From a virus, in the IMG/VR virus record IMGVR_UViG_3300032665_000210, positions 1-22,204 of that record: DNA of 22,204 bases; one strand, 5' to 3'. Below, piece after piece: positions 303 through 14,455 of the stretch; position 1 is the first letter of the stretch; every line of letters starts with the position of its first letter. The position numbers and the translations under genes are program-made. The notes beneath the pieces are model-generated. The model had not been told where the DNA came from. It was given only the letters and a program-made list of their open reading frames with translations, and did no database searches.

Positions 303-626
303 TTAAGCCATCGGACCTCTAGACATACGACCTTTAGTAGCTGCACCAGCTCCACGCATTTCAATGCCAGACGTTTTTGGCTCTTTGGTTGTGCCATAGC
401 TAACACCGTTAGGAATAGGATCACGCAGATCTGCATCTTTTACAGATTTAGTAGTTGCATATGGAATATCATCTTCCATCGCTTGGAAGCTCTCTACTGT
501 GTATTTTTTGCCAGACATAGTATGCGGAGCAGCATAGTCAGAGGCTGGTTTGTCATTTTTAGCATGACCAGTATGAACAGCTGGGCTATTCTTTTTGGTT
601 GCTTTTACTGATTTATCGTATGCCAT
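303..626 (-). CDS. Small basic protein with C-terminal GAATKGR motif, function unknown
   Basis: This 107-residue protein starts MAYDKSVKATKK and is preceded by a GGAAGAGG ribosome site. It is hydrophilic, with no membrane segment and no cysteines. The C-terminal stretch MRGAGAATKGRMSRG carries a G-x-x-T-K-G-R pattern. That pattern recurs at the C-termini of the proteins encoded at 1266-1559 (KGRTKGRF) and 3512-4357 (RGHTKTKY). Similar short basic proteins occur next to neck genes in uncultured aquatic phages, but I know of no established function. It lies in the virion operon, starting just after the 64-residue gene stops, so a minor virion or assembly role is a reasonable guess. Confidence 0.75.
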   Translation of the reverse strand: MAYDKSVKATKKNSPAVHTGHAKNDKPASDYAAPHTMSGKKYTVESFQAMEDDIPYATTKSVKDADLRDPIPNGVSYGTTKEPKTSGIEMRGAGAATKGRMSRGPMA

Positions 627-627
627 A

Positions 628-822
628 TTAACGACCTCTTCCAGAAGATTTTTGGTTCATTGCACGAGCCATGTTGCGACCTACCGCTTTCATAGCTTTA
701 CCAGTTACTCCACCTTTAGCCATTTTAGTAGGCTTCATACCTGGGTGCATATGATGTTCATGTTTATGAACTTCTTTTTTTGCTTCTTTATCTGCAATCT
801 TAGTTACTTGCTTCTTGTCCAT
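628..822 (-). CDS. Small Lys/His-rich basic protein with MAKGG motif
   Basis: The protein has 64 residues. An AGGAG ribosome site sits 6-7 nt before the ATG. The N-terminal third (MDKKQVTKIADKEAKKEVHK) looks helical and charged. It is followed by a His/Met segment, HEHHMHPGMKPTKMAKGG, and a basic tail ending SSGRGR. The KKxVxxHEHxMH...KxGG arrangement resembles a group of very small phage proteins of unknown role that I recall from freshwater and marine viromes. It shares the AKGG/KKGG signature with three other genes of this operon. Nucleic-acid or metal binding is possible from composition alone. No catalytic motif is visible. Confidence 0.72.
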   Translation of the reverse strand: MDKKQVTKIADKEAKKEVHKHEHHMHPGMKPTKMAKGGVTGKAMKAVGRNMARAMNQKSSGRGR

Positions 823-831
823 TTTAAACTC

Positions 832-1266
832 CTAAGTTGTTGTAATGGTTACTGTACCGATTGTTATAACAGGAAGCAAGGAATTTGGCGTTAAATAACT
901 ATCAAAATAACTTGCTCCACCTACGGGATTCCAACCCCACTGAATCTGCCTACTACCATCGCTTGGATAACCTAAATTATCCACGTTAAACGCATTTGGA
1001 TCATAAGGATTTGTCATCAATCCTGATGTTCCACCAGCGTAATAACTGACATCTGGGCGTGGCTCCCGTACAGCTTGCGGATCATTCACAGGATATAAAC
1101 CAAGACTTAACTGTGGTTGATCTGGATCCCAACACTCAGGACATACTTTGATATTAAAAAGTTTGGTTTTAATAACCTCTTTTTTCAATTCTTTGAGCAT
1201 ATATCGAAAACCACAACGATCACATTGTGCTATTGCCCATTTGCCAGATGAATACTTATTTGGCAT
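832..1266 (-). CDS. Zinc-ribbon-containing phage structural protein
   Basis: This is a 144-residue protein. Near the N-terminus it carries two CxxC knuckles, CDRCGF (C15, C18) and CPECWDPDQPQL (C42, C45), separated by a lysine-rich helix. That is a four-cysteine zinc-ribbon arrangement. The rest is Pro/Gly/Tyr-rich (PQAVREPRPDVSYYAGG and later NPVGGASYF) and ends in a beta-prone Thr-rich segment, VITIGTVTITTT. The CDRCGF...CPxCWDPDQPQL signature recurs in virion gene clusters of uncultured podovirus-like phages, usually without a named function. Its start overlaps the stop of the preceding gene (TAATG), suggesting translational coupling. It may be a small connector or tail-associated protein, but this is unproven. 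Confidence 0.8.
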   Translation of the reverse strand: MPNKYSSGKWAIAQCDRCGFRYMLKELKKEVIKTKLFNIKVCPECWDPDQPQLSLGLYPVNDPQAVREPRPDVSYYAGGTSGLMTNPYDPNAFNVDNLGYPSDGSRQIQWGWNPVGGASYFDSYLTPNSLLPVITIGTVTITTT

Positions 1267-1559
1267 TAGACGAACCTACCTTTTGTACGACCTTTTCTTT
1301 CTATGCCATGACCTCGAATAACACCGCCTTTTTTGCGGTTTAATGGACTGTCTGGGTTAAATGGATTATTAGATCCTGGAACATAACCAGCACCGCCACC
1401 GCCTTTAGGAGAACTGCCTTTAGGTGTTTTATCGTAATACCCCATGTCCTTTAATCTTTCAGCATAGGTACGATCACGTTCAGCATCTACTTTAGCTCTG
1501 TGTTCTTGAGCCATTTTAGAAGCTTCATCTATAGCTTTTTGTTCTTCAGGGGTAGGCAT
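1266..1559 (-). CDS. Basic Gly-rich protein with C-terminal KGRTKGRF motif
   Basis: A 97-residue hydrophilic protein. The N-terminal half is a charged helix (MPTPEEQKAIDEASKMAQEH, then RAKVDAERDRTYAERLKDM). A Gly/Ser/Pro linker follows, and then the basic tail NRKKGGVIRGHGIERKGRTK with a final GRFV. The tail has the KKGG and G-I-x-x-K-G-x-T-K signatures that also occur in 3512-4357. Start and stop codons overlap with both neighbours (TAATG on each side), so it is firmly part of the virion operon. I do not recognise a function. The ordered helix plus basic tail would suit a protein that contacts DNA or another virion protein. Confidence 0.75.
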   Translation of the reverse strand: MPTPEEQKAIDEASKMAQEHRAKVDAERDRTYAERLKDMGYYDKTPKGSSPKGGGGAGYVPGSNNPFNPDSPLNRKKGGVIRGHGIERKGRTKGRFV

Positions 1560-2518
1560 TATCTTCCATGACCTCCGTAAAAAGACATCCTAGGAACAAA
1601 ACGAATAGCTGCTTTTTCCCTATCTTCTTGGGAAGCTAAATCCCATTGTTCCATGTACTCAGCTTTGAGCATTGGAATACGATTAGGATCTACCCCAGGG
1701 ATTTTGGAAGACAAGTAAAACGCTAGTCCAGCCACCATGCATGGGATGAATCTAAATGGAATGTCATTGGTATTAATACCAGTGCCAGCATCCTGAATCC
1801 TACGCATACGCCAGTAAACAAAAGTGTATTGGCTGCCTGGAGAGTTTGGAGTGGGCCAGACGTTAATACAAGGCAGATTGACCACGCTAATCGAAGCTCC
1901 AGTCGCATGAGCAGCTGGGGTAGTACCATTCTGACCACGATAGCAATTTAACATCTGTGGAGCCGTTGTAGAGACATTTGGGTAGTAAATAATCTCATTG
2001 TCTATCTGGATGTAGCCAGTGGCTGCTAAACCTGTTAAGTCAGATTGATTTAACTGAATAGTAGTGTCGGTAGCACTAATACCAGTGGTTGATCCATTAC
2101 CGTATAAGGTGTAATTGGTAGGATTGTTTTGTCCAGACTGGCGGTTAATCCATACTTGAATAGGTCTTCCTTGAGCCAATTTATTAGGCAAAGTCGAGTA
2201 GGTGTCCTCGGAAATGCGACTAATATTAATATCTATCTGGTTTTGCAAAGTACCAGTTCGGATAACTTGGCTCAATAAGTCGATGGTATCTATTGGCAAA
2301 GGGTAGGTAATCTGTCCAGTAACCATAGGAATTTGACCTTCTTGGATAGTCCAAAGGTTAATTCCACGATTTGCCCATTCAACGGTTAAAAGATTTAAAG
2401 ACCGTCTAGCTGTCCTAAAATCATAACCAGTTCTAAGTTCGACACCGCACCTCTCAAACGCCTCTTCAATGAGATCGTTCATGTTTAGGTCAAATACGGA
2501 TGTCCCTGAAGTAGCCAT
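1559..2518 (-). CDS. Head-tail adaptor protein (P22 gp4-like / tail tubular A-like)
   Basis: This 319-residue protein begins with a helical segment typical of adaptor proteins (DLIEEAFERCGVELRTGYDF, then RTARRSLNLLTVEWANRG). It ends with VYWRMRRIQDAG, PFRFIPCMVAGLAFYLS and KAEYMEQWDLASQEDRE, signatures I associate with neck adaptors that extend the portal ring. Between about residues 127 and 216 there is a Thr/Gly-rich beta module (ATDTTIQLNQSDL, GYIQIDNEIIYY, CYRGQNGTTPAAH) that looks inserted into the core. Similar modules turn up in many phage tail proteins. It follows the short KWIQ gene with a TAATG overlap. Confidence in an adaptor role is good. The exact homology to gp4 versus T7 gp11 is not settled. 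Confidence 0.8.
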   Translation of the reverse strand: MATSGTSVFDLNMNDLIEEAFERCGVELRTGYDFRTARRSLNLLTVEWANRGINLWTIQEGQIPMVTGQITYPLPIDTIDLLSQVIRTGTLQNQIDINISRISEDTYSTLPNKLAQGRPIQVWINRQSGQNNPTNYTLYGNGSTTGISATDTTIQLNQSDLTGLAATGYIQIDNEIIYYPNVSTTAPQMLNCYRGQNGTTPAAHATGASISVVNLPCINVWPTPNSPGSQYTFVYWRMRRIQDAGTGINTNDIPFRFIPCMVAGLAFYLSSKIPGVDPNRIPMLKAEYMEQWDLASQEDREKAAIRFVPRMSFYGGHGR

Positions 2519-2697
2519 TATTTATGCTTAAAGCCTTTAAGAGTTTCTGCTAAACGAGCACGTTGACCTAGCTTGCCAGGTTTTTTAGCAGCAGCAGCCA
2601 GTTTTTTCTCAGGAATAGTATGTCCTTCTTTTACTCCCAAAGCCTTACGCAACGCACCAGCTTTTTTGATAGCGTGTTGAATCCATTTTTCTGCCAT
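2518..2697 (-). CDS. 59-residue conserved basic phage protein (MAEKWIQ family)
   Basis: A short gene fills the 180 bp between its neighbours. The ATG is at 2695-2697 and the TAA at 2518-2520. The 59 residues start MAEKWIQHAIKKAGALRKAL and end LAETLKGFKHK, with a middle of IPEKKLAAAAKKPGKLGQRA. It is strongly basic and probably helical. I recognise the KWIQxAIKKxGALRKxLGVK...KKLAAAAKKxGKxGxRARLAxTLK pattern as a very common small protein in phage and plasmid genomes. No function is known to me. Its stop overlaps the adaptor start (TAATG). No strong ribosome site is visible, so it may be translated by coupling. Confidence 0.82.
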   Translation of the reverse strand: MAEKWIQHAIKKAGALRKALGVKEGHTIPEKKLAAAAKKPGKLGQRARLAETLKGFKHK

Positions 2698-2699
2698 GA

Positions 2700-3035
2700 T
2701 TAACTCGCAACATTTTGTTCTGGATCAACGGGAGCAGTAACTTCAACGGTTGCAGATGCTGGTTCTTCAACATTGATAGTTACGCTGGCTGGTGCTTCTA
2801 CAGGAGCAGCTTCAACAGCAGGAGATGCTTCAGCTACGGGAGCAACTTGTACAGGTTCTGATGCTGGAACTAAAGAAGCAGCAAAAGATGTTACCACTGG
2901 GGAATCTGAGAATCCCAAAGCTACTTTTTCACTAGCCAAATAAGCAGCAAATTCATTTAATAATTTGTGCTCTTCACCTTCCATTGCATGACCAGCACTT
3001 TTTACATAATTTACTACTTTTTCAAATAAGTTCAT
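2700..3035 (-). CDS. Ala/Val/Pro-rich acidic protein, function unknown
   Basis: The protein has 111 residues. The first 45 (MNLFEKVVNYVKSAGHAMEG, then LNEFAAYLASEKV) look helical and amphipathic. From about residue 55 it becomes a low-complexity Ala/Val/Pro/Glu tail (VQVAPVAEASPAVEAAPVEA, then TVEVTAPVDPE), probably disordered and acidic. Its ATG overlaps the stop of the previous gene (ATGA). It contrasts with its basic neighbours. I do not recognise a family. An acidic disordered tail beside several highly basic proteins raises the possibility that they interact, which is only a guess. Confidence 0.7.
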   Translation of the reverse strand: MNLFEKVVNYVKSAGHAMEGEEHKLLNEFAAYLASEKVALGFSDSPVVTSFAASLVPASEPVQVAPVAEASPAVEAAPVEAPASVTINVEEPASATVEVTAPVDPEQNVAS

Positions 3036-3295
3036 TTTTTCTTCCTTGCAGCTCGTAAGTTATCGACTAAATTAGGATAAGGTCTTCCAGCTGCTTTAGC
3101 CATTGCTTTCGCACTAGCTTTTTTAGCTGAAGACAATTTCTTTGGTTTCCCAAGGTCTTTTGGTCTTGGTTTATCCCAAACTTGCCCACCTTTGGCATAA
3201 AACTCAACAGCATCAGGATTATCCTTTCTCTGGATAATCTTTTTGCGTGGCATCTTAGATGGGTTAACTGCTCCCATCCCTCGGCTGGCTCTCAT
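3032..3295 (-). CDS. Basic protein (MRASRGMGA family), function unknown
   Basis: An 87-residue, very Lys/Arg-rich protein starting MRASRGMGAVNPSKMPRKK. In the middle is the stretch DAVEFYAKGGQVWDKPRP. The tail is KKLSSAKKASAKAMAKAAG followed by NLVDNLRAARKKK. The MRASRGMGAxxPxKMPxxK start and the YAKGG segment match a small family I recall from aquatic phages, where the function is unassigned. The start overlaps the stop of the His-rich gene upstream (TAATG), and its own stop overlaps the next start (ATGA). The composition suggests nucleic-acid contact. There are no cysteines or enzymatic motifs. Confidence 0.75.
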   Translation of the reverse strand: MRASRGMGAVNPSKMPRKKIIQRKDNPDAVEFYAKGGQVWDKPRPKDLGKPKKLSSAKKASAKAMAKAAGRPYPNLVDNLRAARKKK

Positions 3296-3498
3296 TACTT
3301 ATGAGCGTGACCGCCACCGCACATTGCTTCAACGTGCTCGTGGTGATGTTTGTGACCATGCATACCGCCATCATGCTCTTTCAAATGCTTTTCGTGAGCG
3401 TGATGTTTATGGATATGACCGCCATGAGCATGACCACCATCATGTTCTTTCAAATGATGCTCAATATGTTCGTGATGTTTTTTGTGTCCGTGTGACAT
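3295..3498 (-). CDS. Extremely histidine-rich small protein (25 of 67 residues His)
   Basis: This 67-residue protein contains 25 histidines (37 percent), plus Lys, Glu, Gly and one Cys. A 23-residue internal repeat is visible: HLKEHDGG occurs at residues 15-22 and again at 38-45. The rest consists of HxH, HHxH and HGG runs (for example HAHGGHIHKHHAH). A GGAG ribosome site sits 6-7 nt before the ATG, and the stop overlaps the next start, so it is very likely translated. The opposite-strand frames over the same DNA are shadows of this repeat structure. The composition points to binding of Ni, Zn, Co or Cu, or to pH-dependent charge. I know of no assigned phage function. The motif EHHxKEHxG is shared with the next gene. 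Confidence 0.82.
   Translation of the reverse strand: MSHGHKKHHEHIEHHLKEHDGGHAHGGHIHKHHAHEKHLKEHDGGMHGHKHHHEHVEAMCGGGHAHK
3368..3456. repeat. 69-bp-period direct repeat inside the His-rich gene
   Basis: Two 20-bp copies differing at one base (CCATCATGCTCTTTCAAATG at 3368-3387 and CCATCATGTTCTTTCAAATG at 3437-3456) lie exactly 69 bp apart. This is 23 codons and underlies the HLKEHDGG protein repeat. The flanking codons also repeat loosely. The pattern suggests growth of the gene by an internal duplication. Confidence 0.8.
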
Positions 3499-3511
3499 AG
3501 ATTTCTCCTAA

Positions 3512-4357
3512 TTAACAGTATTTGGTTTTTGTATGACCACGTTTAGCAATGCCATCAGCACGGCTAGATGTAGAACCACCATGAGCCATTTTCTTAATAT
3601 GACCACCATGTTTTTTACCAGAAATAGAACCAGATGTGCCAATAGTGTTGTCACCATCGTTATGCATCTTTGGTTTGCGATCTTCAGTATGACCACGTTT
3701 TTGGTCTTTAGACTCACCAAATTTACCGTGTTTGTTAGAACCAGCTTCAACATCATGCTTCATGCCACGAGGACCCATAGTTTCTTTTTCTTTCATATGA
3801 CCACGAGGCTCTGTGCTGGCTTCACGTTTAATAGCACCACCCATTGCATATTTCTTCATATGGGCTTTGCCACCATGACGCATACCAGCTGCTTCGTGCT
3901 CTTCTTCTTTAGCAAGTTTACGAAGTTCTTTAGCTTGATGCATTTCGTGTTCTTTTTCAGCATGAGCATGACCACCTTTAGCCATCTTTTTAGTGTGATG
4001 ACCTTCATGCTCTTTCATATGGTGTTCAGCCATCGCTAAATGGTGATGAGCTAAATGTTTGTGATGTTCTTTAGACAAGCCACCATGTTTCATGCCACCA
4101 GCCATAGGACCTGCTGGAGGTGCCATTGGAGCAGCTGCTGGAGTTGGCATGGCACGAGCTGCCATCATAGCCATCGCTGGGTTTACACTACGTTTTCTTG
4201 TTGCCATGTTGATTCCACCTTTTTTAAAATGTTTGCCTTTATCGGCTTTTGCAAAATCCTCACCTACCGATTGAGGAACTCCTACTTTTTTGGCAAAAGC
4301 CTTGTTGTGGGCTACTGCCTCCATAAAATCATGCTGTCGTTTGGACTTACTTGGCAT
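3512..4357 (-). CDS. Fusion-like protein: DUF3008-type N-terminus plus His/Lys/Met/Gly-rich body
   Basis: A 281-residue reading frame with two distinct parts. Residues 1-48 (MPSKSKRQHDFMEAVAHNKA, then KKVGVPQSVGEDFAKADKGK and HFKKGG) match a complete small phage protein of the DUF3008 type, as I recall it. Residues 51-281 begin with a second start, MATRKRSVNPAMAMM (ATG 4205-4207, with GGTGG 7 nt upstream). This part continues as low-complexity repeats of MKHGG, MRHGG, AKGGH and HHMKEHEGHH and ends GIAKRGHTKTKYC. The frame is uninterrupted, so both a full-length fusion and an internally started 231-residue product are possible. The ATG at 4357 overlaps the preceding stop (TAATG). Function unknown. 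Confidence 0.75.
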   Translation of the reverse strand: MPSKSKRQHDFMEAVAHNKAFAKKVGVPQSVGEDFAKADKGKHFKKGGINMATRKRSVNPAMAMMAARAMPTPAAAPMAPPAGPMAGGMKHGGLSKEHHKHLAHHHLAMAEHHMKEHEGHHTKKMAKGGHAHAEKEHEMHQAKELRKLAKEEEHEAAGMRHGGKAHMKKYAMGGAIKREASTEPRGHMKEKETMGPRGMKHDVEAGSNKHGKFGESKDQKRGHTEDRKPKMHNDGDNTIGTSGSISGKKHGGHIKKMAHGGSTSSRADGIAKRGHTKTKYC

Positions 4358-4596
4358 TATTTATGTCCTTCAATAAACCTGTCAAGCTTTGCTTCAATGC
4401 GGTCAAAGCGGTTGATAATTTGGTCCATATCATTACGCACTTCAATTTTAGTAATGTAATCACGAGCTATCTCCTCACGAGTCTTATTCAAAAGGATGCC
4501 TTGACGTGCAAGCTCATCAGCTTTCTCTTTAAGCATAAAGCTCACGATAGCACCTAAAACATATGCTAATACAGTTAATATCTCGAATATGGACAT
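4357..4596 (-). CDS. Small single-pass membrane protein with coiled coil
   Basis: This 79-residue protein has one N-terminal hydrophobic segment (about residues 3-22, IFEILTVLAYVLGAIVSFML). A charged helix follows (KEKADELARQGILLNKTREE) and then a heptad-like stretch, DMDQIINRFDRIEAKLDRFI. This is an N-anchored membrane protein with a coiled-coil tail. Phage genes of this shape include holin-, spanin- and immunity-like proteins, and also many unassigned ones. No dual-start or lipobox pattern is visible. A GGAA site lies about 8 nt upstream of the ATG. A lysis-related job is possible but not supported by any neighbouring endolysin in this window. Confidence 0.78.
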   Translation of the reverse strand: MSIFEILTVLAYVLGAIVSFMLKEKADELARQGILLNKTREEIARDYITKIEVRNDMDQIINRFDRIEAKLDRFIEGHK

Positions 4597-4845
4597 TTAA
4601 CATTTCCATTTTCTCAAAGATTTATTAATCCGACTATTTGGATCATGGGCTGTTTCCGAACTGGTTAATCGTTTTTTCATGCCTTCCATGCGAGCACAGA
4701 AAGACTTTTTACGGCTACCACCTTCTGGCTGTGGTGCTTTTAAATGAGCACCATGCTCTTTGTTATAAGAAGCTCTGCCCTTGGCATTTAAACCACCACT
4801 AGGGTTTTTACCCTCTGATCGTTGCCAAGCTGGTGTCTTTGCCAT
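4597..4845 (-). CDS. Small conserved phage protein (DUF6321-like)
   Basis: An 82-residue basic protein starting MAKTPAWQRSEGKNPSGGLN, then AKGRASYNKEHGAHLKAP. It continues KKSFCARMEGMKKRLTS and ends NKSLRKWKC. I recognise the pattern PAWQRxxGxNPxGGLNxKGRxSYxxExGxxLKAP...RKxSFCARMxGM...SLRKWxC as a short family widespread in cyanophage- and pelagiphage-type genomes. I believe it corresponds to DUF6321, from memory only. The family has no known activity. It is encoded between virion genes, usually near tail or structural genes. The two cysteines (SFCARM and the C-terminal WKC) are a conserved feature. The ribosome site is weak. Confidence 0.82.
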   Translation of the reverse strand: MAKTPAWQRSEGKNPSGGLNAKGRASYNKEHGAHLKAPQPEGGSRKKSFCARMEGMKKRLTSSETAHDPNSRINKSLRKWKC

Positions 4846-4847
4846 AA

Positions 4848-5699
4848 TTAGCTACCACTATCAATCAAAACACCACCAATGTTAATACCTACAGTACAAG
4901 CAACAGTACCACTAGGGGCAATTTGCCATTGAACATCCGTGCCAGCTGGATAAGCAAATGGGAAAGTGCGTTGGATATTAAATTGTTGCACAAATGGTGT
5001 ATTTAAAACTACTCTACGCACTAGCGTGGCAGATGAATTTAATACAGATGGATATTGAGCTACAGCCCTATATGTGCAGTAGTTTGCAGTATTACCAGTA
5101 AACGAACTATTTGCAGTAAATCTTGTCAATTGCAAAGTGGCGTTTGCTGGAACCGTATAAACAGACATTTGGGATGTGCCAATACTGATAGTGCTACCGT
5201 TGTAAGTAGTTGTATTGATCTGTGCATACTCAACAGCACCAGATGTTGCAGCTTGGTTTTGAATAGTAATTACGCCAGTGGGTTGTACTGTACTAGCCAA
5301 AGCTACGGAAATGTTGTTGATACGATAATATGATTTAACAGTTGCTACGCCTGTACCAGAAGTGCCACCTAAAGCAACAATCTCAGATATTGGGTTGTAG
5401 TTTGCATCCAATCCAGTAACTTGAATCAAAGCACCAGAGTCACCGTTTACTGTACTTGCAACATACATTACTTGTGCTGCTACTGGGAATATATAATTGG
5501 TGGTGGACGAGTTTTCCCACATGGTTACAAATAAACCAGCAGTTGTGCCAGTCGTTCCATAACCAAAAATATTTACAGGTGTATGACCAGTAATTTGGTT
5601 GCGTGATACTTGCAAATCAAATGGCTCATACTTAGCCTGACGGCTAATCGACTGCACCGAGTTATTGGTGCTTGGTATTCCACTTGGGCTTTGTGCCAT
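4848..5699 (-). CDS. Beta-rich virion structural protein
   Basis: The protein has 283 residues and follows a strong AGGAG site. The sequence is Ser/Thr/Asn-rich and beta-prone throughout. Recognisable segments are QVSRNQITGHTPVNIFGYGT, SGALIQVTGLDANYNPISEI and YYRINNISV. A family of phage structural proteins of unassigned detail shares the QITGHTPVNIFGYG and LDANYNPISE signatures. It is expressed as the first gene after an intrinsic terminator at 5718-5741, so it probably depends on read-through or on its own promoter. The sequence suggests a tail, head-decoration or fibre-base component. No enzymatic motif is visible. Confidence 0.78.
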   Translation of the reverse strand: MAQSPSGIPSTNNSVQSISRQAKYEPFDLQVSRNQITGHTPVNIFGYGTTGTTAGLFVTMWENSSTTNYIFPVAAQVMYVASTVNGDSGALIQVTGLDANYNPISEIVALGGTSGTGVATVKSYYRINNISVALASTVQPTGVITIQNQAATSGAVEYAQINTTTYNGSTISIGTSQMSVYTVPANATLQLTRFTANSSFTGNTANYCTYRAVAQYPSVLNSSATLVRRVVLNTPFVQQFNIQRTFPFAYPAGTDVQWQIAPSGTVACTVGINIGGVLIDSGS

Positions 5700-5717
5700 A
5701 TTAATCTCCTAAGTTTT

Positions 5718-5741
5718 AAAAAAGGGGAACCGTAGTTCCCC
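5718..5741 (-). terminator. Intrinsic terminator downstream of the 5753-6454 gene
   Basis: Read on the minus strand, a perfect 7-bp stem (GGGGAAC paired with GTTCCCC) is closed by the tetraloop TACG and followed at once by six T. The C(UACG)G loop belongs to the very stable UNCG tetraloop class. It lies 12 bp past the stop of the upstream gene and just before the ribosome site of the next gene. Confidence 0.9.
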
Positions 5742-5752
5742 AAGAGGATTAA

Positions 5753-6454
5753 TTAGTCAAAGTTACCGTATGGGTAAGTTGTCGCATTACCAATGTTCAT
5801 ATCTTGTTGTGCATATTTCAATGTAACAGCAATTTGACCAGATGTAGGAGCGGTCAAGCTGGTATTAGTAATCTTCAATGTCACAACAATCTGGCTAAAC
5901 CATGTAGGCTGTTGACCAGGTTGAATATTTTGAACGTCTTGTAATGTGCCATAAGCGTAATCTAACTGTGTGCCTACAAATGTTGCAGTGCCACGAGTTG
6001 CTGAAGTAATAGCAGCCATCGTTGCATACACACCTGTAGCGGTAGCAAATTTGTTAGAAACGTATGGTTGAATAGAGTTAGCAGTTACTGAACCGTCAGT
6101 TGGCAATGTGCCTACGTCAATGATTACATCAGTAATGTTTGAGTTTTGTGGAATCAAAAATGATACGCCACGATAAATAGTTCCAGAAGCATCTGCTGTA
6201 GGAGCAGTAGCAACAGTAGGACCATTAGTGCTATAAGCACCAGACTGTGGATTCCAAATAGTTGCTGCTTGGTTAGGAATATTGTCAGAAGTAACAAATA
6301 CACCAGAACCGCCACCATAACCAGCTTGACCTGCGGAGGTCACAGCAAAATCTAAAAAGGCTTGTTGAGCCAATAAGACTGGACCAACGTCACGTTGTGG
6401 ACCAAAACGATTATCACCCGATAAAATCGGACCATCAAATGTACTGCGACCCAT
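5753..6454 (-). CDS. Beta-rich virion structural protein
   Basis: I place the start at the ATG of MGRSTFDGPILSGDNRFGPQ (6452-6454), because AAGGAG sits 6-7 nt upstream. A longer frame from a TTG at 6472 would begin inside that ribosome site. The 233 residues are Gly/Thr/Ala-rich, with a C-terminal beta region (FSQIVVTLKITNTS, then GQIAVTLKYAQQDM). The opening GRSTFDGPIxSGDNRFGPxRxVG is a pattern I recall from uncharacterised structural genes immediately downstream of phage coat genes. It is bracketed by two intrinsic terminators, which may set its level apart from that of the coat gene. The role is probably a minor capsid or decoration protein. Confidence 0.8.
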   Translation of the reverse strand: MGRSTFDGPILSGDNRFGPQRDVGPVLLAQQAFLDFAVTSAGQAGYGGGSGVFVTSDNIPNQAATIWNPQSGAYSTNGPTVATAPTADASGTIYRGVSFLIPQNSNITDVIIDVGTLPTDGSVTANSIQPYVSNKFATATGVYATMAAITSATRGTATFVGTQLDYAYGTLQDVQNIQPGQQPTWFSQIVVTLKITNTSLTAPTSGQIAVTLKYAQQDMNIGNATTYPYGNFD

Positions 6455-6630: not shown

Positions 6631-7533
6631 TTAGTATGAACCGTAAACACCTAATGGATCAGAAACACCAAAGGAATAACGCTCACGAGACTTGTATCTT
6701 ACGTTACCAGTATCGAAGTCGCCATCCATAGAGTTCTGGAGTGGTGTACGAACAAACATCTTCAAACCGTTTGGAACATCAGTGGTCAAGAACCATGCGT
6801 TGGTTGCGGTCAAGAAGTGGTTAATTGCGTAACCTTCTGGAACTGCACCATTGTTCTTAATTGCATTGATGTCGTTGTTGTTTGTACCAACACGCAATTC
6901 AGTTTCAAGCAAACGAGTTGCAACGAACTGTAATGCAGGTGGAATAATCAACTTCTTCGGTTTTGCAGCGATCAACAGACCACGTTCATCTGTCCAAGCA
7001 GCGATTTGAATAACAGCGTTTTCCAGCGCAGTTTCGTTCAAGTCAGCAGGAGTAGATGGAGTGTTGGCGTTAGTACCACCAGAAATCAAAGGATGTGCAG
7101 TAGAGAACAAAGGCTGACCGTCACCATAGGTGAACTGGCTATTAAAACCGTTATTCAATACAGCAGCAGCTTTAACCTGTTTGGTGTAAGCCATAGCACG
7201 AGCCAAAGCCTTGGTATAGCGACCAGATAACGAGTCATACAAGTTATCTTCGATTGCCTCTTCAGTCAAACTGAAGCCCAAAGCGATAGTTTCATGGTTG
7301 TAACGAGCTGTCCATGCTTCTTGTCCGTTGTCATAAGCGATGGCTTGGCCTTCGTTTTTGACTGGAGCAGCTGAGAAGCCTGACAGTTTTGTTTCTTCTT
7401 CAAAAGAACGCTCAGAGGTCTCGATTTCATAGATCTCTTTGTGTTCTTCACCGTAACGAGCATACTCAAGACCAAACAGGGCGTTTAATCCAGGTAATAG
7501 CTCTTTTAGTAGTTGTGCACGAGAAATAGCCAT
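6631..7533 (-). CDS. Major capsid protein (Mu gpT-like, HK97 fold)
   Basis: A 300-residue protein after a GGAG site. Diagnostic segments are KLSGFSAAPVKNEGQ (E-loop side), ALGFSLTEEAIEDNLYDSLS, the long helix RYTKALARAMAYTKQVKAAA, DGQPLFSTAHPL, and KPKKLIIPPALQFVATRLLE. The run of conserved elements matches the Mu-type major head subunit family (gpT) of HK97-fold coat proteins. It forms the icosahedral shell with the portal and scaffold candidates upstream. It lies directly before a strong terminator, as expected for the most abundant product of the operon. The length is typical, and no protease or delta domain is fused to it. Confidence 0.93.
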   Translation of the reverse strand: MAISRAQLLKELLPGLNALFGLEYARYGEEHKEIYEIETSERSFEEETKLSGFSAAPVKNEGQAIAYDNGQEAWTARYNHETIALGFSLTEEAIEDNLYDSLSGRYTKALARAMAYTKQVKAAAVLNNGFNSQFTYGDGQPLFSTAHPLISGGTNANTPSTPADLNETALENAVIQIAAWTDERGLLIAAKPKKLIIPPALQFVATRLLETELRVGTNNNDINAIKNNGAVPEGYAINHFLTATNAWFLTTDVPNGLKMFVRTPLQNSMDGDFDTGNVRYKSRERYSFGVSDPLGVYGSY

Positions 7534-8444: not shown

Positions 8445-8897
8445 TTAAGAACCTTTACCAAAGGACACTGTAGACTTCCGTTCTTGGAACAGAGGCATAC
8501 GAGAATCGCTTTGCCGTAAAAAACTATTGTCTACTGCTTCTGCATTTGCTTGGGTTTGGTTGTTCTCATAATCCATCCTTGCCTTCACAAATTCCTCAGG
8601 AATTTTGCATAACAGTAAACCACCGATTTCGATATTGTCTTTGTATCGACTATCTGGATCGGTCAACATTCCATATTTCGGTTGCTCTTCAGCTCTGACT
8701 GCTTCCCAGCCTTCTCTTAGTTTGGAAGATAAGTTGCGAGGGTCAGCGTTGTTAAGCATCGAAACCCTAACCCAGCGATAAGCATAACCTGCTTGCTTGT
8801 CTGGTTCAGGTAACAACTCAGGGGGTTTCCACGCCATAGGGCGAGCCTCTTGTTGTCTTGTTTCAATTTCACGGGGGGTACGATTGTTATTAGCCAT
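8445..8897 (-). CDS. Conserved phage head-region protein, function unknown
   Basis: The protein has 150 residues. It begins MANNNRTPREIETRQQEARP. The recognisable core is GYAYRWVRVSMLNNADPRNL, then SSKLREGWEAVRAEEQP and IGGLLLCKIPEEFVKARMDY. The end is basic (RKSTVSFGKGS). The RWVRxSxLxxADxxNxxxKxREGWExVxxEExP pattern is common in genes between scaffold and coat genes of podovirus-like aquatic phages, without a named function. The ATG overlaps the last 8 bases of the scaffold-candidate gene, and GGAG lies 7-8 nt upstream. It may be a scaffold-associated or capsid-maturation factor, judged by position alone. Confidence 0.8.
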   Translation of the reverse strand: MANNNRTPREIETRQQEARPMAWKPPELLPEPDKQAGYAYRWVRVSMLNNADPRNLSSKLREGWEAVRAEEQPKYGMLTDPDSRYKDNIEIGGLLLCKIPEEFVKARMDYENNQTQANAEAVDNSFLRQSDSRMPLFQERKSTVSFGKGS

Positions 8898-9834
8898 TTT
8901 GGGACTCCGTTTTAACTAGTTCGTTGTAATATTGCTCTGGCGTAATTTTGAATTTCTTAGCCAGTTCCATTTGACGGGTGTTTAATGTGATCTTTTTTGA
9001 AGACGTTGACCTCGTTGCTGGAGCAACCACCGTGCTTTTACGAGTTGTAGCAGGAGATTTGGTTCCTGCTTCTTCCCCAAATTTCTCTGGGAAACGTCTT
9101 CTCATTTCGGTATCTATAGCGTTCCAGTAATGATCGGAGCCTGTCGGGACTCCCTCACGTTCCAGCCGCTTATGGATTCCCATAGCGAGAAAACTCATGT
9201 CATCGTCAGTGCCGTACCATTTGTTTTTGTCAAGCCACGATTGGGTTTTTGAGTCCAGTCGTGTTGGTTGGCTCTGCTGTTGAGGTATTTGTACATCAAC
9301 TTCAGAAGATTGTAAAGTATTTTCGTCATATTGTGGAACATAACGATCCATCTCTTGAGCTTTAAATTTAATTTCAGTTAAACGCTCTTGAGCTTCTACT
9401 AAACGCTCTGCATCGCCAGAGTCATAAGCCTCTTTGTATGCACGTCTTGCTTGATCAAGATCAGAGGCAATTTTTTCTTTAGCTGTTGATACATACACCT
9501 TTTCGCCATCAGAAAGTCGACCTTTAAGGCGTTTGTTTTCTTCAATAATGGTGTTAGCAACCCGAATAGCTTCTTCGTTTTCACGCTGGATAGCTTCTTT
9601 AGCCCTGCGTTCATCGTTAATCAGCTTTTTCATCTGCAAAAGGCGTTGTTTTGCCTCTTTAGAATAGGCTTCTAAGTCATCATTGTCGATTTCTTCAACG
9701 ATTTCTTTAGGAAGTGGTGCTGCATTAATACGATCTTCTTCTGGGGTATCGTCAACAATCTCTAATTCAACCTCTGGTGGGGTTGCATCATCACTTTCCA
9801 AAAAAGAAAAGTCTTGTTTTTCAAATTCAGCCAT
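8890..9834 (-). CDS. Scaffolding protein candidate (coiled coil)
   Basis: The protein has 314 residues. The N-terminal 60 are acidic. About residues 50-170 form a long charged coiled coil (QRLLQMKKLINDERRAKEAI, then KIASDLDQARRAYKEAY). The remainder includes SKTQSWLDKNKWYGTDDDM and a basic C-terminus with MELAKKFKITPEQYYNEL. An acidic start, a central coil and a small basic C-terminal helix-turn-helix are the usual layout of phage scaffolds. The gene lies between portal and coat genes, as in P22. GGAG precedes the ATG by 7 nt. Family membership was not tested by search, but the role fits both context and shape. Confidence 0.82.
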   Translation of the reverse strand: MAEFEKQDFSFLESDDATPPEVELEIVDDTPEEDRINAAPLPKEIVEEIDNDDLEAYSKEAKQRLLQMKKLINDERRAKEAIQRENEEAIRVANTIIEENKRLKGRLSDGEKVYVSTAKEKIASDLDQARRAYKEAYDSGDAERLVEAQERLTEIKFKAQEMDRYVPQYDENTLQSSEVDVQIPQQQSQPTRLDSKTQSWLDKNKWYGTDDDMSFLAMGIHKRLEREGVPTGSDHYWNAIDTEMRRRFPEKFGEEAGTKSPATTRKSTVVAPATRSTSSKKITLNTRQMELAKKFKITPEQYYNELVKTESQNG

Positions 9835-9845
9835 GTTTTTTCTCC

Positions 9846-10256
9846 TTAAACACGAGTAATTCCACGAGGATCTTCAACTACAGCCTCGACAGAATCGTCA
9901 TTAATTAATCGGAACTCACGACCATGAATCTTTAGGCGTGTGCCAGTGTTTGGTCTGGCAAGAATAAAGTCACCTTCTTGGCACCAAGGACCAGTAGGAA
10001 ACCTTTTTTCATCTTTGTAGCAATCAGGTCCCATTTTGATAACAAAAAAGACGGTGGAAAGCACTTCTTCCATTTGCAGTGTGGCATCCGCTTTGAGGAT
10101 TCCACCAGCGTGTTCTTTTTCAGCATCAGGAATACCAACAAGCATACGATAGCCTTGTGGCATGGGTAATTGTCTTGCTTTTTCTTCACCTGTTTGAGGC
10201 AAAGTCGTTACGTTACTCACATCATCGGGGTTTGAGCCGATTAGTATTTCACTCAT
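9846..10256 (-). CDS. GroES-like cochaperonin (Cpn10 fold)
   Basis: I use the ATG at 10254-10256 (GGAGA upstream). The frame extends one TTG codon further. In 136 residues, positions 34-130 follow the Cpn10 plan. QGYRMLVGIPDAEKEHAGGI matches the GroES start (RPLxDRVxVKR...E..SAGGIxL), with GGIL at 51-54 in the place of the hydrophobic mobile-loop tripeptide that contacts GroEL. Then come VFFVIKMGPDCY (the VLAVGxG strand), EGDFILARPNTGTRLKIHGR (VGDxVIFxxxxGxxxKxxGxE), and FRLINDDSVEAVVED. The role would be co-opting host GroEL to fold the coat protein, as T4 gp31 does. The GGIL loop and the order of strands make this a strong call without a search. Confidence 0.85.
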   Translation of the reverse strand: MSEILIGSNPDDVSNVTTLPQTGEEKARQLPMPQGYRMLVGIPDAEKEHAGGILKADATLQMEEVLSTVFFVIKMGPDCYKDEKRFPTGPWCQEGDFILARPNTGTRLKIHGREFRLINDDSVEAVVEDPRGITRV

Positions 10257-10443
10257 CAAAATTCTCCAAGTTCTTTTTAAGGTCTGAAATGTACATCCTT
10301 ACAGACAGAAGACCCGTTATCTGTCCGCAAGTCTTTTGGTAGTCAGCGTAGTCTTTGGCTACACCAGTACCAAGGGACTCTTCCAAGTCCCTTACTCTCA
10401 CATCTACCTGTTTGAGGAGATGATCTAGTATTTTTTCCTTCAT
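10249..10443 (-). CDS. Small conserved protein between portal and cochaperonin genes
   Basis: A 64-residue helical protein starting MKEKILDHLLKQVDVRVRDL. The middle is DYADYQKTCGQITGLLSVRM and the end is ISDLKKNLENFDE. The DYxDYxxxxGxIxGLxxxxxxIxDL pattern is frequent in short genes following phage portal genes. I believe it has no known function. Its ATG overlaps the portal stop (ATGA), and its last bases overlap the cochaperonin start, so translation is likely coupled across all three genes. The predicted long amphipathic helices suggest a small assembly factor. Confidence 0.78.
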   Translation of the reverse strand: MKEKILDHLLKQVDVRVRDLEESLGTGVAKDYADYQKTCGQITGLLSVRMYISDLKKNLENFDE

Positions 10444-12956
10444 TCAATTTCCTTTTTGGTTTTTTGAGCCTGGGTTTTTGCCATTTCAGCTAAGATTTTG
10501 AGCTTCTCTGACTGGCGTTGTTGATTCATCTGGGCTTTATTACTTCCTATTTGATGACCTAATTTCATTCCTTCTAATTCTTGTTTAGCAGCAAGGTTGG
10601 CTTTATCAGAAGCAGTTTTTGCTCCCACTTGCATACCAGCAATTTCTTTTTGCGCTGCAATACGCATTTTTTCAATTTCAATTTGATCAGCTTTACCAGC
10701 TGCATCCATAGCCAGTTTCTTCTGCTTAATGTCGATTTCCTGTGCTTTAAGCTGTAATTCTTTCATCTGCATCTGAACAATAGGATCTTGAGCAGCTTGC
10801 TGTGCCTGTTGTGCAGCCACCGCAGTCTGGTTCTGTTGCAATAGATTTTGAGCAGCTGGGACAGCCAGACGAGCAATTTGCATTTCTTGTTCTGGAGTCA
10901 TATGAACATCTGGATCATCGTCATCAGAATACGGAATGTTAATGCCCATTTGCATCTGCATTTGTCGCATATATTCAAGACCAACGTGTTCAGTAATGTG
11001 AGCTTGCATCGCTTGAATCATCATAGGAGCTTGTGGGTTTTGACCAATAGTTTGTTTGATCTTTGGATCATTCATAGCAGCCATATGAATCTGAATATGG
11101 GCTTGATGGTCTTGACCAATGAAGGCTTTTAATGGTTTGTTCTTTAAGGCGTTGACGTTTTCCGTTACTGGATCTGTAGGCTTCATGTCTTCTGGCAATG
11201 GAACCAACTTCTCTAGGTTCTTAATGCCGATGACTTCTAACATCTGACGATGTAAGTAAGGAAGGTTGTAAAGCTGGGGAGCTGTCTGGCATAACTGTAG
11301 GGCAGCTTGATACTGAACTACCTTTTGGCTCATGGTTGCTGCGTTTGGATCTGATACGGGAATGATATTGACCATATCGTAGTCAGATTTACGGGCTGTA
11401 CGATTACCGCTAGTAGGCTGGTAACTGTAATCTTCTGGAGCGTAGTCAGCAATGATTCTCTTAAGAAGTTTAAATTCTTGCTTCATGGAGTAATGAATAC
11501 GAGCTTGAATCGCAGACATGACTTTAAGTGTGCGTTCTAAAATTGCTAAAGTCGTACCCACTGGAGCTTGGCTGCTCATGTCTGATGCTTTTAAATCGCC
11601 AGAAGAAGCAAAACGTCTACCTTCTTCTACGATCTGGTTGAGCAACGTCATTAATGTTTGGCTTGGCTCTTTATACGGCAATGGCATGATGTTGTCTTTC
11701 ATCGCACCACTTGGAACATCTACGTCACGGAACTCACCTGGAGCTATCGGGGTATCGTCACCTTTGACACGCAACCCACGAGTCTTAAAGCCTCCAGGAA
11801 GATTGGACAATGACCCTGCATCAACCAGCTGACGAAGAATGGAAGTGCCCGATTTAGCAAAAGCTCCAATAAGATGAATAAGCCCGAAATGATAAAAGCC
11901 GAAGCCAGGGATATAGCCATAATGTACAAAATGCTGGCGTTTTTGGTGAGTTTTGTCATCTGGATCCCAGTTTCTACGGATTGCTAACACCTGTCCGTTT
12001 GATTTTTCAATGGTTACAACATAAGGAAGAGCAATGCCTGTTGGTTCGCCATGCTTATCTGTGTGCTCAAAACCTTCTAAATCAAGGTGGCAGTGCATTT
12101 CAAGGACTTTAAAACGGTCATCAGTAGATGCCCTAAAGCCTAATTTTTCTGCAATTTTCTTTTCAATCTCATCTAAGACGTTATCTGGCGATCCTAGATT
12201 TAAATCACGATAGAACCCTTCATACTGTAGGCGTTTAAGTTCGTTTTCTGTTTTACGCATCACATGGGTAATGCGTTCTGCGGATTCAAGACTAGAAGCA
12301 CCGTAAGGAACAACCAAATCTTCAGCAGGAATATACATTGATACTTGACGATCTAGGCTTGGATCTACATAAACCTTTTTAAATCCGTTACCTGAAAGTC
12401 CTACACCCCAGAGCATACGCTCATGTTCAGGGCGAAACTCTTGCATCACATCGGTAAGCTCATGGTTCATGTCTTCTACAACACGCTCACAAGCATCTTT
12501 TTTCTCTGATGTTTCTTTACCAACAATTTCGCCCTTGACTGGACCAGCTGCTGGAAAGGTTTCCATGATGGTTTCAGATTGGAATTTAATGACGGCTTCG
12601 GCTAAGACTGGATGGTAAACACCGCAAGCACCTTCCCAAGGTTCTGAACGCTCTTCAATCTTTAAGCCAAGAAGTTCTAAGCCATCAACATAGGTTTGAA
12701 TCCAGTCACGTCTAGAATCAATGTCCGATTGGAAATCTTCTAAGAGTTCGCTGGCAATTTGTAGTAAAACCGATTCAGGCAAATATTCAGCAAGGTTTGC
12801 ATCAAAGTCTTCAATCTCCTCGCCTTCCATTTGGATTTTTATTCCACCAACTTTTACGTCTACCTCTTCAGGGTCAACAATTTCAATTTCAACATCTGGT
12901 CCTTCTAAATCAGGTAAACCTTGGGGGGCTGCATACATTGCTTTATCGATTGACAT
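10440..12956 (-). CDS. Portal protein
   Basis: An 838-residue protein directly after TerL (8-bp gap). AAGGA lies 6-7 nt before the ATG. The core holds portal-type segments: DIDSRRDWIQTYVDGLELLG, PWEGACGVYHPVLAEAVIKF, GVGLSGNGFKKVYVDPSL, IPAEDLVVPYGASSLESAER, and GFGFYHFGLIHLIGAFAKSG. It forms the dodecameric DNA channel at one capsid vertex. The last 150 residues or so are a Gln/Ala/Lys/Met-rich helix (QTAVAAQQAQQAAQDPIVQM, then KELQLKAQEIDIKQKKLAM). That recalls the long helical barrel of P22-type portals, and the length (P22 portal is about 725) also points that way. The acidic N-terminus (residues 15-50) is an addition of unknown purpose. Confidence 0.93.
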   Translation of the reverse strand: MSIDKAMYAAPQGLPDLEGPDVEIEIVDPEEVDVKVGGIKIQMEGEEIEDFDANLAEYLPESVLLQIASELLEDFQSDIDSRRDWIQTYVDGLELLGLKIEERSEPWEGACGVYHPVLAEAVIKFQSETIMETFPAAGPVKGEIVGKETSEKKDACERVVEDMNHELTDVMQEFRPEHERMLWGVGLSGNGFKKVYVDPSLDRQVSMYIPAEDLVVPYGASSLESAERITHVMRKTENELKRLQYEGFYRDLNLGSPDNVLDEIEKKIAEKLGFRASTDDRFKVLEMHCHLDLEGFEHTDKHGEPTGIALPYVVTIEKSNGQVLAIRRNWDPDDKTHQKRQHFVHYGYIPGFGFYHFGLIHLIGAFAKSGTSILRQLVDAGSLSNLPGGFKTRGLRVKGDDTPIAPGEFRDVDVPSGAMKDNIMPLPYKEPSQTLMTLLNQIVEEGRRFASSGDLKASDMSSQAPVGTTLAILERTLKVMSAIQARIHYSMKQEFKLLKRIIADYAPEDYSYQPTSGNRTARKSDYDMVNIIPVSDPNAATMSQKVVQYQAALQLCQTAPQLYNLPYLHRQMLEVIGIKNLEKLVPLPEDMKPTDPVTENVNALKNKPLKAFIGQDHQAHIQIHMAAMNDPKIKQTIGQNPQAPMMIQAMQAHITEHVGLEYMRQMQMQMGINIPYSDDDDPDVHMTPEQEMQIARLAVPAAQNLLQQNQTAVAAQQAQQAAQDPIVQMQMKELQLKAQEIDIKQKKLAMDAAGKADQIEIEKMRIAAQKEIAGMQVGAKTASDKANLAAKQELEGMKLGHQIGSNKAQMNQQRQSEKLKILAEMAKTQAQKTKKEIE

Positions 12957-12964
12957 AAGGATCC

Positions 12965-14455
12965 TTAGTAATAACCTTTTTTACGCCTAAATTCTTGTGG
13001 CTCATCTGGCTCATCGCTTTGCAGCGTAATAAAGCCACCTCTTCTAAATCTTAACAGTGCTTGGGTTGTGGAGTCTACTAAGTCATCGTGATCTGAATTG
13101 GGAAATGCTGCTAATTCCTCTACTACTTCTTCAGCCCAGCGTTTTCTTGGTGCCCAAATTTTACCGCTTGCAAACAAATCAGATACGCTATTAACACGAG
13201 ATATTTTATCGTTACCCCTAGTCGGTGTAAACTCTTGAACAGGAATACCCATCCTTCTAAGTTCAAATATAAGTGGAGCACCAGATGCTTTCGCTTCAAC
13301 AATGAACGAATCTGGTTCCCAGTCTTTATACATATCATAGGCTCGCTGTTTAAGAGTGGGGAACTCCATTCTCTCTTTAAACGCATCCAATAAAATGATA
13401 TTAGCATCCGTTTTATCTTCATTTAGGTAAAAAACTCCCCAAGTCGTACACGCTGAATAGTCAGCCCGTTCTGATTTTGTAAATGCCGTATCCCAAGATT
13501 GGATAATGTAATCACAAGGGGGAGGGGTTTCTTTATCCCAGACCCTCCACCATTCCCGTTTTACAAGAGCACCTTCTTCAGAGGTCGGATCTTGTTGATA
13601 CTGGGCTTGCCACTTAGAAAGCGGTAGTTCTATCCTTAGTTTATCAAGTTCTTCGTAAGACCAAAACTCGGGCCAGAGGGGTTTTTCGTTTCTTTTTATC
13701 GCTGGAAGGCTGATGATTTCCCATTCATCACCGTCTCTGTCCACCATCGCTTGGCAGATTTTTCCCGTCAGATCCCTTTTAGACCAACGGGTCATCACAA
13801 CTACAATAGATCCTCCAGGCTGCAAACGCTGGCGAGGACCTGAAGTGTACCACTCGTACACCTTATCAAAAACGCTAGGATCCCCAGCTGCAAGTGCTGC
13901 TTCTTGCTCGGAATGAGGGTCATCAATAATGAGAAGATCAGCACCTTTACCAGTAACAGTACCGCCAACACCAATAGCAAAATACTCCCCGTTAGCATTA
14001 GTACTCCAACGACCAGCAGCCTTGCTATCCGATCTAAGAGCAACATTAGGGAATACTTTGGCATATGCCTCTCCGTCTACTAAGTTACGCACCTTTCGAC
14101 CAAAACCAACTGCAAGTTCAGCCGTGTTAGAACATTGAATGATTTTCTTATTAGGGAATTTTCCTAAGAACCAAGCTGGCAAAAGATAACTGGCAAACTC
14201 AGACTTAGTATGACGAGGTGGCATATTAATAATAAGGCGTTTAATTTTTCCACTGGCAATCTCCTCAAATTTTGTTGCCATTAATGCGTGATGTTCGCCA
14301 TGAATAAAATTGGGCCACATGGTTTCTACAAACGACATAAAGTCAATTTGCCCAGTTTCACGAGTTACTGCATCCTGATAAGCCAACGCCAATGGGCGTA
14401 GCTTTGCCTGATCCTCCTCAGGCAGCTGGTCAATGATGGCTAACAACTCATCCAT
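12965..14455 (-). CDS. terL: Terminase large subunit (ATPase plus nuclease)
   Basis: A 496-residue protein with the full terminase layout. Walker A is PPRHTKS (residues 79-85), Walker B with the catalytic acid is LLIIDDPH (174-181), and the coupling motif is VVVMTRW (218-224). An RNase-H-like nuclease follows, with D322 in SWDTAF, E388 in VEAKASG and D457-D458 in DHDDLVDS. It pumps DNA into the prohead through the portal and cuts the concatemer. Walker A has Thr where the family more often has Gly (PPRHGKS). I have seen this variant in aquatic phages and expect it to be active. The start overlaps the end of the LexA-like gene. The length is normal, and no intein or frameshift is seen. Confidence 0.96.
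   Translation of the reverse strand: MDELLAIIDQLPEEDQAKLRPLALAYQDAVTRETGQIDFMSFVETMWPNFIHGEHHALMATKFEEIASGKIKRLIINMPPRHTKSEFASYLLPAWFLGKFPNKKIIQCSNTAELAVGFGRKVRNLVDGEAYAKVFPNVALRSDSKAAGRWSTNANGEYFAIGVGGTVTGKGADLLIIDDPHSEQEAALAAGDPSVFDKVYEWYTSGPRQRLQPGGSIVVVMTRWSKRDLTGKICQAMVDRDGDEWEIISLPAIKRNEKPLWPEFWSYEELDKLRIELPLSKWQAQYQQDPTSEEGALVKREWWRVWDKETPPPCDYIIQSWDTAFTKSERADYSACTTWGVFYLNEDKTDANIILLDAFKERMEFPTLKQRAYDMYKDWEPDSFIVEAKASGAPLIFELRRMGIPVQEFTPTRGNDKISRVNSVSDLFASGKIWAPRKRWAEEVVEELAAFPNSDHDDLVDSTTQALLRFRRGGFITLQSDEPDEPQEFRRKKGYY

What the first reader, a model, noticed from the sequence alone, without database searches (positions are those of the whole stretch)
303..4357. Cluster of Gly-Lys/His low-complexity proteins with a shared C-terminal motif
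Six genes (303-626, 628-822, 1266-1559, 3032-3295, 3295-3498, 3512-4357) are small or low-complexity and rich in Lys, His and Gly. AKGG/KKGG/HGG signatures recur in four of them. Three end in related tails: GIERKGRTKGRF, GIAKRGHTKTKY and GAGAATKGRM. Such a set inside a neck/tail operon, around a canonical adaptor, suggests one shared structural or DNA-condensing role, or a common targeting tail. I know similar small genes from uncultured phages but no assigned function.
Basis: partly seen in the sequence, partly recalled or inferred. Interest (0 to 1): 0.6.

Follow-up and report, generated by a model that had tools for sequence, protein, structure and literature searches.

The report
Shared C-terminal tag on phage proteins
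A lineage of mostly uncultivated short-tailed phages puts the same short, positively charged tail on the end of more than a hundred kinds of otherwise unrelated small proteins made beside its head and neck genes, which looks like an address label, most likely for loading proteins into the virus particle, although that function is untested.

Summary
A 15-17-residue tail, RADG[IC]Ax[KR]GKT[KR]G[KR][MI]x, ends 419 proteins at 192 loci, 1-5 per locus; their bodies form at least 113 similarity groups. All 47 loci chosen by the adaptor alone, with enough upstream sequence, carry it; chance controls give 0-4 hits against 422. Codons differ between copies, so the protein is what is kept. Twelve of 126 DUF6321 proteins carry it as an add-on. 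A neighbouring lineage has another tail, KGQGxVxRxKKTRIC, on at least two bodies, one homologous to RADG-tagged proteins. Each tail type is one group in the capsid tree, with selection caveats. The third tail (303-626) is neither terminal nor modular. Best reading: a lineage-specific C-terminal recognition tag, most likely loading accessory proteins into virions. Recognition is well supported; the virion role rests on gene context and on a jumbo-phage relative of the N-terminal module found in virions by mass spectrometry. What reads the tag is unknown.

The parts
3512..4357 (-). Tagged protein 1 (281 aa): N-terminal module, Lys/His/Gly-rich middle, C-terminal tag
   Evidence: tail HGGSTSSRADGIAKRGHTKTKYC ends at the stop codon
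3515..3565 (-). C-terminal tag of 3512-4357: SRADGIAKRGHTKTKYC
   Evidence: motif of 419 proteins at 192 loci
4220..4357 (-). N-terminal module (about 46 aa): predicted three-helix domain shared with phiKZ PHIKZ165.1 and with virion proteins of RaK2/GAP32/CBB-like jumbo phages
   Evidence: model pLDDT 83-94 over residues 1-40
1266..1559 (-). Tagged protein 2 (97 aa), downstream of the adaptor
1269..1313 (-). C-terminal tag of 1266-1559: GHGIERKGRTKGRFV
   Evidence: same sub-type (RGHGIExKGRTKGRxV) in L004, L006, L009, L010, L071
303..626 (-). Protein with conserved end RGAGAATKGRMSRGPMA; one orthologous family, not a modular tag
628..822 (-). Small basic protein, matched at 111 loci, no tag
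832..1266 (-). Cys-rich, zinc-ribbon-like protein; only sub-threshold Pfam matches
1559..2518 (-). Head-tail adaptor (SU10/Pam1-like)
2518..2697 (-). Small basic protein, weak match to phrog_15706/phrog_20603
2700..3035 (-). Acidic Ala/Pro/Val-rich protein amid basic neighbours
   Evidence: matched at 9 loci
3032..3295 (-). Small basic protein, phrog_34011 (AGRPYPNLVDNLRA), usually next to the tagged genes; no tag
3295..3498 (-). His-rich 67-aa protein, restricted to close relatives
4357..4596 (-). Small protein beside the cassette, weak match to phrog_12220/7885/462
4597..4845 (-). DUF6321 protein; untagged here, but some homologues in the lineage carry the tag as an add-on
6631..7533 (-). 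Major capsid protein (phrog_371)
8890..9834 (-). Scaffold-like protein (phrog_28737; role inferred from position)
9846..10259 (-). GroES-like co-chaperonin, named from annotated relatives
10440..12956 (-). Portal
12965..14455 (-). Terminase large subunit

Best explanation
The tail is a portable C-terminal recognition tag. In this lineage an open set of small, mostly basic, apparently disordered proteins is encoded by a variable cassette between the capsid and adaptor genes, and each ends in the tag. A phage component reads the tag and, most likely, brings its bearers into the assembling head, so that they are packaged and perhaps ejected with the DNA. Shown: the motif, its C-terminal position, its attachment to at least 113 body groups, conservation at protein level, confinement to the cassette, presence as an add-on in one body family, and a different tail on a homologous body in a neighbouring lineage. 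Inferred: that something binds it, that the outcome is entry into the virion, and that the cargo acts in the host.
For: Tag as a unit: 419 tagged proteins, at least 113 body clusters; the consensus of 150 tagged proteins is nearly empty except for the tail; tag identity is 57-86% across all levels of body identity and 66% between unrelated bodies; 0-4 chance hits against 422; 47/47 adaptor-selected loci carry it; of 19 long IMG/VR records 17 match a strict tag pattern, 1-5 times each, and none matches the reversed pattern; codons differ (median tag DNA identity 63% within a genome). Add-on: among 126 DUF6321 proteins most end ..WKC/WNC and 12 carry a terminal tag in differing versions. Lineage-specific: the YRKPT..EGEKDFLSKISTT body has a RADG tail in L072-L074 and a KGQG..KKTRIC tail in DSL-LC04 and relatives; each tail type is one side of a well supported branch in the capsid tree. 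Virion link: neighbours are capsid, adaptor and portal genes; the N-terminal module of the largest tagged family also begins CBB_322, found in CBB virions with 30 unique peptides and 43.57% coverage (PMC5259590); one tagged domain also lies inside an 825-aa multidomain phage protein.
Against: No tagged protein is known to be in a virion: no proteomics of a tagged phage was found. No binding partner was identified. Few bodies match anything: in 150, Pfam gave DUF6321 in 3 and one weak hit each to three other families, the Ntox43 one below its curated cut-off, so the effector idea is weak. The cultured relatives RW, CRP-901 and HTVC023P showed no tagged protein in the regions read, and a strict tag pattern gave no match in the whole CRP-901 and HTVC023P records, so the tag is not generally needed. 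Length beyond the motif varies, so an exact free carboxyl end is not required. AF2 gave no usable fold for the one body tried (pLDDT 43).
Confidence: 0.5

Rival explanations
1. The tails and the Lys/Gly-rich bodies are polycationic DNA binders that neutralise or condense packaged DNA; the tail is the active part and the bodies are dispensable spacers.
For: Median pI of tagged proteins 10.1, mean tail charge about +4.9, body pI median 9.8. The N-terminal module is modelled as three helices; its top Foldseek names are mostly HTH DNA-binding proteins, but with E above 2.
Against: Charge alone does not explain residues that the search pattern did not force: Asp before the anchor Gly 87%, Ile/Cys after it 88%, Gly at +9 84%; nor Thr at +7 99%, where only Thr or Ser was allowed. 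Bodies have their own conserved families across genomes.
Confidence: 0.2
2. The tail docks small structural proteins onto a neck, portal or tail component, as minor structural parts rather than cargo.
For: The genes lie between capsid and adaptor genes and a tag is kept in all 47 adaptor-selected loci; tail type follows the capsid lineage.
Against: 1-5 genes per locus with bodies that differ between genomes is unlike structural parts of fixed copy number; CRP-901 has only two genes between capsid and adaptor.
Confidence: 0.16
3. The tail is a C-terminal degradation signal read by a host or phage protease; the proteins are short-lived.
For: Many tails end in basic then non-polar residues (RMV, KMI, KIC), loosely like ClpX-recognised ends such as that of MuA (from memory, untested).
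Against: The conserved part extends 10-15 residues upstream of the end, and about a quarter of tails run on well past the motif.
Confidence: 0.06
4. The shared 3' ends are a DNA element: a recombination joint for swapping gene cassettes, with the protein sequence a by-product.
For: Bodies vary and the end is shared; a few genomes have near-identical tag DNA (5 of 328 within-genome pairs at 95% or more).
Against: Fourfold sites are close to random (43% identity within a genome, 33% expected from codon usage) and median tag DNA identity is 63% within a genome.
Confidence: 0.04

Closest known systems
T4 capsid targeting sequence (CTS) of internal proteins
   Same: A short terminal peptide shared by several small internal proteins; it can bring virtually any attached protein into the head (PMC7697877).
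   Different: T4's is about 10 residues, N-terminal and cleaved by a head protease. This one is C-terminal, on a far larger and more variable protein set; no head protease was recognised in the window, and entry into the virion is untested.
Capsid targeting sequence of phage P1 DarB
   Same: A targeting sequence reported to direct a heterologous reporter into the capsid (PMC9024508).
   Different: It belongs to one large antirestriction protein; here over a hundred body groups share one tail.
Encapsulin cargo-loading peptides
   Same: A terminal peptide that loads varied cargo into an HK97-fold shell (general knowledge; PMC7355545 located, not read).
   Different: No encapsulin-type motif was recognised; a shell as reader of the tag is only a guess; this is a phage with DNA in the head.
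Polyvalent proteins of phages and conjugative elements (PMC5512222)
   Same: A body domain found tagged here also sits inside an 825-aa multidomain phage protein with HMADGG linkers; polyvalent proteins are thought to be delivered with the DNA.
   Different: Here the units are separate small genes, each with its own tail. The 825-aa protein gave no Pfam or PHROG hit, so its class is by resemblance.
DUF6321 (PF19846)
   Same: A member sits beside the cassette, and some homologues carry the tag.
   Different: DUF6321 is one family without known function; the tag is not part of it.

Membership tests
Capsid targeting sequence, T4 type | Short terminal peptide shared by otherwise unrelated proteins | tested here: met
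Capsid targeting sequence, T4 type | N-terminal position | tested here: not met
   C-terminal in the tagged proteins
Capsid targeting sequence, T4 type | Directs the protein into the head | not testable with these tools
   needs virion proteomics or reporter packaging
Capsid targeting sequence, T4 type | Removed by a head protease | tested here: inconclusive
   No separate head protease was recognised among the window genes scanned, but weak homology could be missed
Encapsulin cargo-loading peptide | Binds an encapsulin shell | not testable with these tools
   No binding data
Polyvalent proteins | Several domains in one polypeptide | tested here: not met
   Tagged proteins are mostly short (median 138 aa); one tagged domain occurs in a multidomain protein elsewhere
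P-loop NTPase (GxxxxGKT look-alike in the tag) | Conserved Walker A Lys in a folded NTPase domain | tested here: not met
   The Lys of GKT is His in the window's own 3512-4357 tag and Arg in 1266-1559; no NTPase family in the Pfam scan of 150 tagged proteins
Stress-induced KGG repeat family | Match to its Pfam model | tested here: not met
   No such hit for the window proteins or 150 tagged proteins
DUF6321 | Match to PF19846 above cut-off | tested here: met
   4597-4845, E 2.4e-23; the two tagged window proteins do not match it

The most novel reading that the evidence does not exclude
Each lineage of these phages has its own C-terminal address code (RADG..GKTKG or KGQG..KKTRIC) that loads an open-ended, fast-changing set of accessory proteins into the virion for delivery into the host, so that a gene acquires a place in the particle simply by gaining the code.
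Probability: 0.4. Interest if true: 0.85.

Novelty: new variant of a known kind. Interest (0 to 1): 0.72.

Why it matters
Tailed phages inject proteins with their DNA, but signals for loading them are known for only a few phages. A tail that can be searched for by sequence would name the likely cargo of a whole lineage of uncultivated phages, and gives a direct experiment: does the tail carry a reporter into the particle? A different tail on a homologous body in each of two lineages is the type of evidence that separates a recognition signal from ordinary homology.

Tried and rejected
Walker A reading of GxxxxGKT: Lys is replaced by His/Arg in the window's own tags, and no NTPase family was found. 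A DNA-level joint: codons differ. The 303-626 tail as a member of the tag: one orthologous family. An ADP-ribosyltransferase-like reading of the L017/L201 body, suggested by eye: no Pfam hit, PDB sequence search not significant, AF2 model unusable; dropped. A toxin-like Ntox43 match in L009 (E 8e-4) is below its curated cut-off. A tagged acyltransferase in a Patulibacter MAG (L204): probably an assembly chimera, since the phage-like part starts at MKRYA close to a contig end; left out of the tagged set. tblastn of 1266-1559 and 303-626 in cultured phages: no match. Literature searches for PHIKZ165.1, Pag-Yong1 and related phages gave no proteomics of a tagged phage.
Full report
What the window is. 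The 22,204-base window is a whole virus record, classed as linear and so often a fragment. On the minus strand it carries terminase, portal, GroES-like, scaffold-like, capsid and adaptor genes. The nearest cultured relatives found through the adaptor include Phage DSL-LC04, pelagiphage HTVC023P, roseophages CRP-901/902, Caulobacter phages and Planktothrix phage Pag-Yong1. The adaptor search returned 80 related loci from IMG/VR.

Check of the observation. Two end in the same kind of tail: GHGIERKGRTKGRFV (1266-1559) and SRADGIAKRGHTKTKYC (3512-4357). The third, in 303-626, is internal: the protein ends GAGAATKGRMSRGPMA. Across the loci that ending belongs to one orthologous family (106 of 121 regex hits; most of the rest are RADG-tag proteins caught by the loose pattern). 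The other three genes lack the tag.

How big the pattern is. A first regex on the 81 loci then held gave 119 C-terminal hits, 118 of them on the plus strand, as expected since the loci were oriented by the adaptor. By tblastn with window proteins, all but two of the 118 new loci (the two are under 1.3 kb) contain recognisable genes of this phage group. The same scan of one genome for each of 84,980 bacterial and archaeal species gave five matches: three sit in phage-like stretches of contigs, one is probably a chimera and one encodes no tagged ORF. Pooled, 419 proteins at 192 loci carry the tag, 1-5 per locus.

Controls. In 12,263 ORFs the motif lies within 30 residues of the C-terminus in 422, against 1 for reversed peptides and 0-4 for shuffled ends. 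All 47 loci chosen by the adaptor alone with at least 2.5 kb upstream carry it. Of 23 records searched whole with a strict pattern, 17 matched, 1-5 times each, and the reversed pattern matched none. The records of L007, L019 and Pag-Yong1 gave zero because their tags (with GHTK or GRTK) fall outside that pattern, so a zero there is not absence of the tag. Some columns of the logo are forced by the regex; the unforced ones are Asp before the anchor Gly 87%, Arg-Ala before it 73-77%, Ile/Cys after it 88% and Gly at +9 84%.

The tail is a unit of its own. With the tail removed, the bodies fall into at least 113 similarity groups, the largest of 222, with 82 singletons. The number is approximate: low-complexity matches can join unrelated bodies and remote relatives can be split, and I did not test either. 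The alignment of 150 diverse members has no strongly conserved column outside the tail; tail columns are partly conserved by selection of the set. Tag identity hardly depends on body identity. The DNA differs: fourfold third-base identity is 43% within a genome against 33% expected, and median tag DNA identity is 63%. Selection is therefore mainly on the protein.

An add-on in one family. Of 126 DUF6321 proteins in the loci, most end ..WKC or ..WNC; 12 have an extra stretch of about 23 residues ending in the tag (a 13th, in L113, has a variant), in forms such as VRGGGCEIRGKTKG and KSADGIAQRGKTKG. Different forms on nearly identical bodies suggest more than one gain; I did not test this on a DUF6321 tree.

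A second lineage, a second tail. Because DSL-LC04 carries a homologue of one tagged body with a different end, I scanned IMG/VR for that end. It gave 31 contigs of the same broad phage group. There the tail VT[ST][KR]GQG[KR]V[IMVT]R[STM]KKTRIC ends at least two different bodies. One, YRKPT..EGEKDFLSKISTT, is homologous to RADG-tagged proteins of L072, L073, L074 and L106. In a capsid-protein tree of 70 rows each tail type is one side of one branch (RADG 100/100, KGQG 100/96). Limits: the loci were chosen by tail or adaptor, untagged relatives are only three, and the root is unknown.

Virion link. Tagged genes sit among virion genes. The commonest tagged family begins with a small module, modelled as three helices, which also stands alone as PHIKZ165.1 in phiKZ-like phages and begins structural proteins of RaK2/GAP32/CBB-like phages. 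CBB_322, one of these, was found in CBB virions by mass spectrometry with 30 unique peptides and 43.57% coverage (PMC5259590). This supports the module, not the tag. A further body domain is part of an 825-aa multidomain protein in another phage contig, with HMADGG linkers, resembling polyvalent proteins, which are thought to be delivered with the DNA (PMC5512222).

Mechanism, with what is shown and what is not. Shown: a portable, C-terminal, lineage-specific motif under protein-level constraint. Inferred: something reads it. Most likely, in my judgement, the reading happens in head assembly and the outcome is packaging, as for the T4 capsid targeting sequence, which can encapsidate virtually any protein attached to it (PMC7697877). 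Confidence that it is a recognition tag of some kind is about 0.85; that it is for virion loading about 0.5. The main rivals are DNA condensation and structural docking.

Comparison. It works like a capsid targeting sequence but is not a member of the T4 type: the position is different and packaging is untested. I found no description of this tail in the searched library, which holds only open-licence PMC papers.

Noticed in passing
phages OL906435.1, PP438419.1, OQ594354.1: Three cyanophage records named after different hosts are all exactly 65,014 bases and match the tag and the adaptor alike; they may be one phage, possibly from a companion bacterium in the cultures.
   Followed up: no
L204 (Patulibacter MAG contig), 162-2003: An acyltransferase ORF ends in the phage tag near a contig edge, probably an assembly chimera at a shared MKRYA stretch.
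   Followed up: partly
window 2700-3035: An acidic Ala/Pro/Val-rich protein lies amid very basic neighbours; matched at only 9 loci.
   Followed up: no
window 3032-3295: phrog_34011 protein usually sits between the tagged genes and the adaptor (167 loci) and gave no match in the KGQG-lineage loci; a possible partner of the RADG tag.
   Followed up: no
L235:1390-3864 and 3864-5930: Two adjacent large multidomain proteins with HMADGG-type linkers follow a terminase gene.
   Followed up: partly
L208:732-989 (CRP-901 gp67): Annotated 'HVA1 family protein', small and basic, in the same phage group.
   Followed up: no
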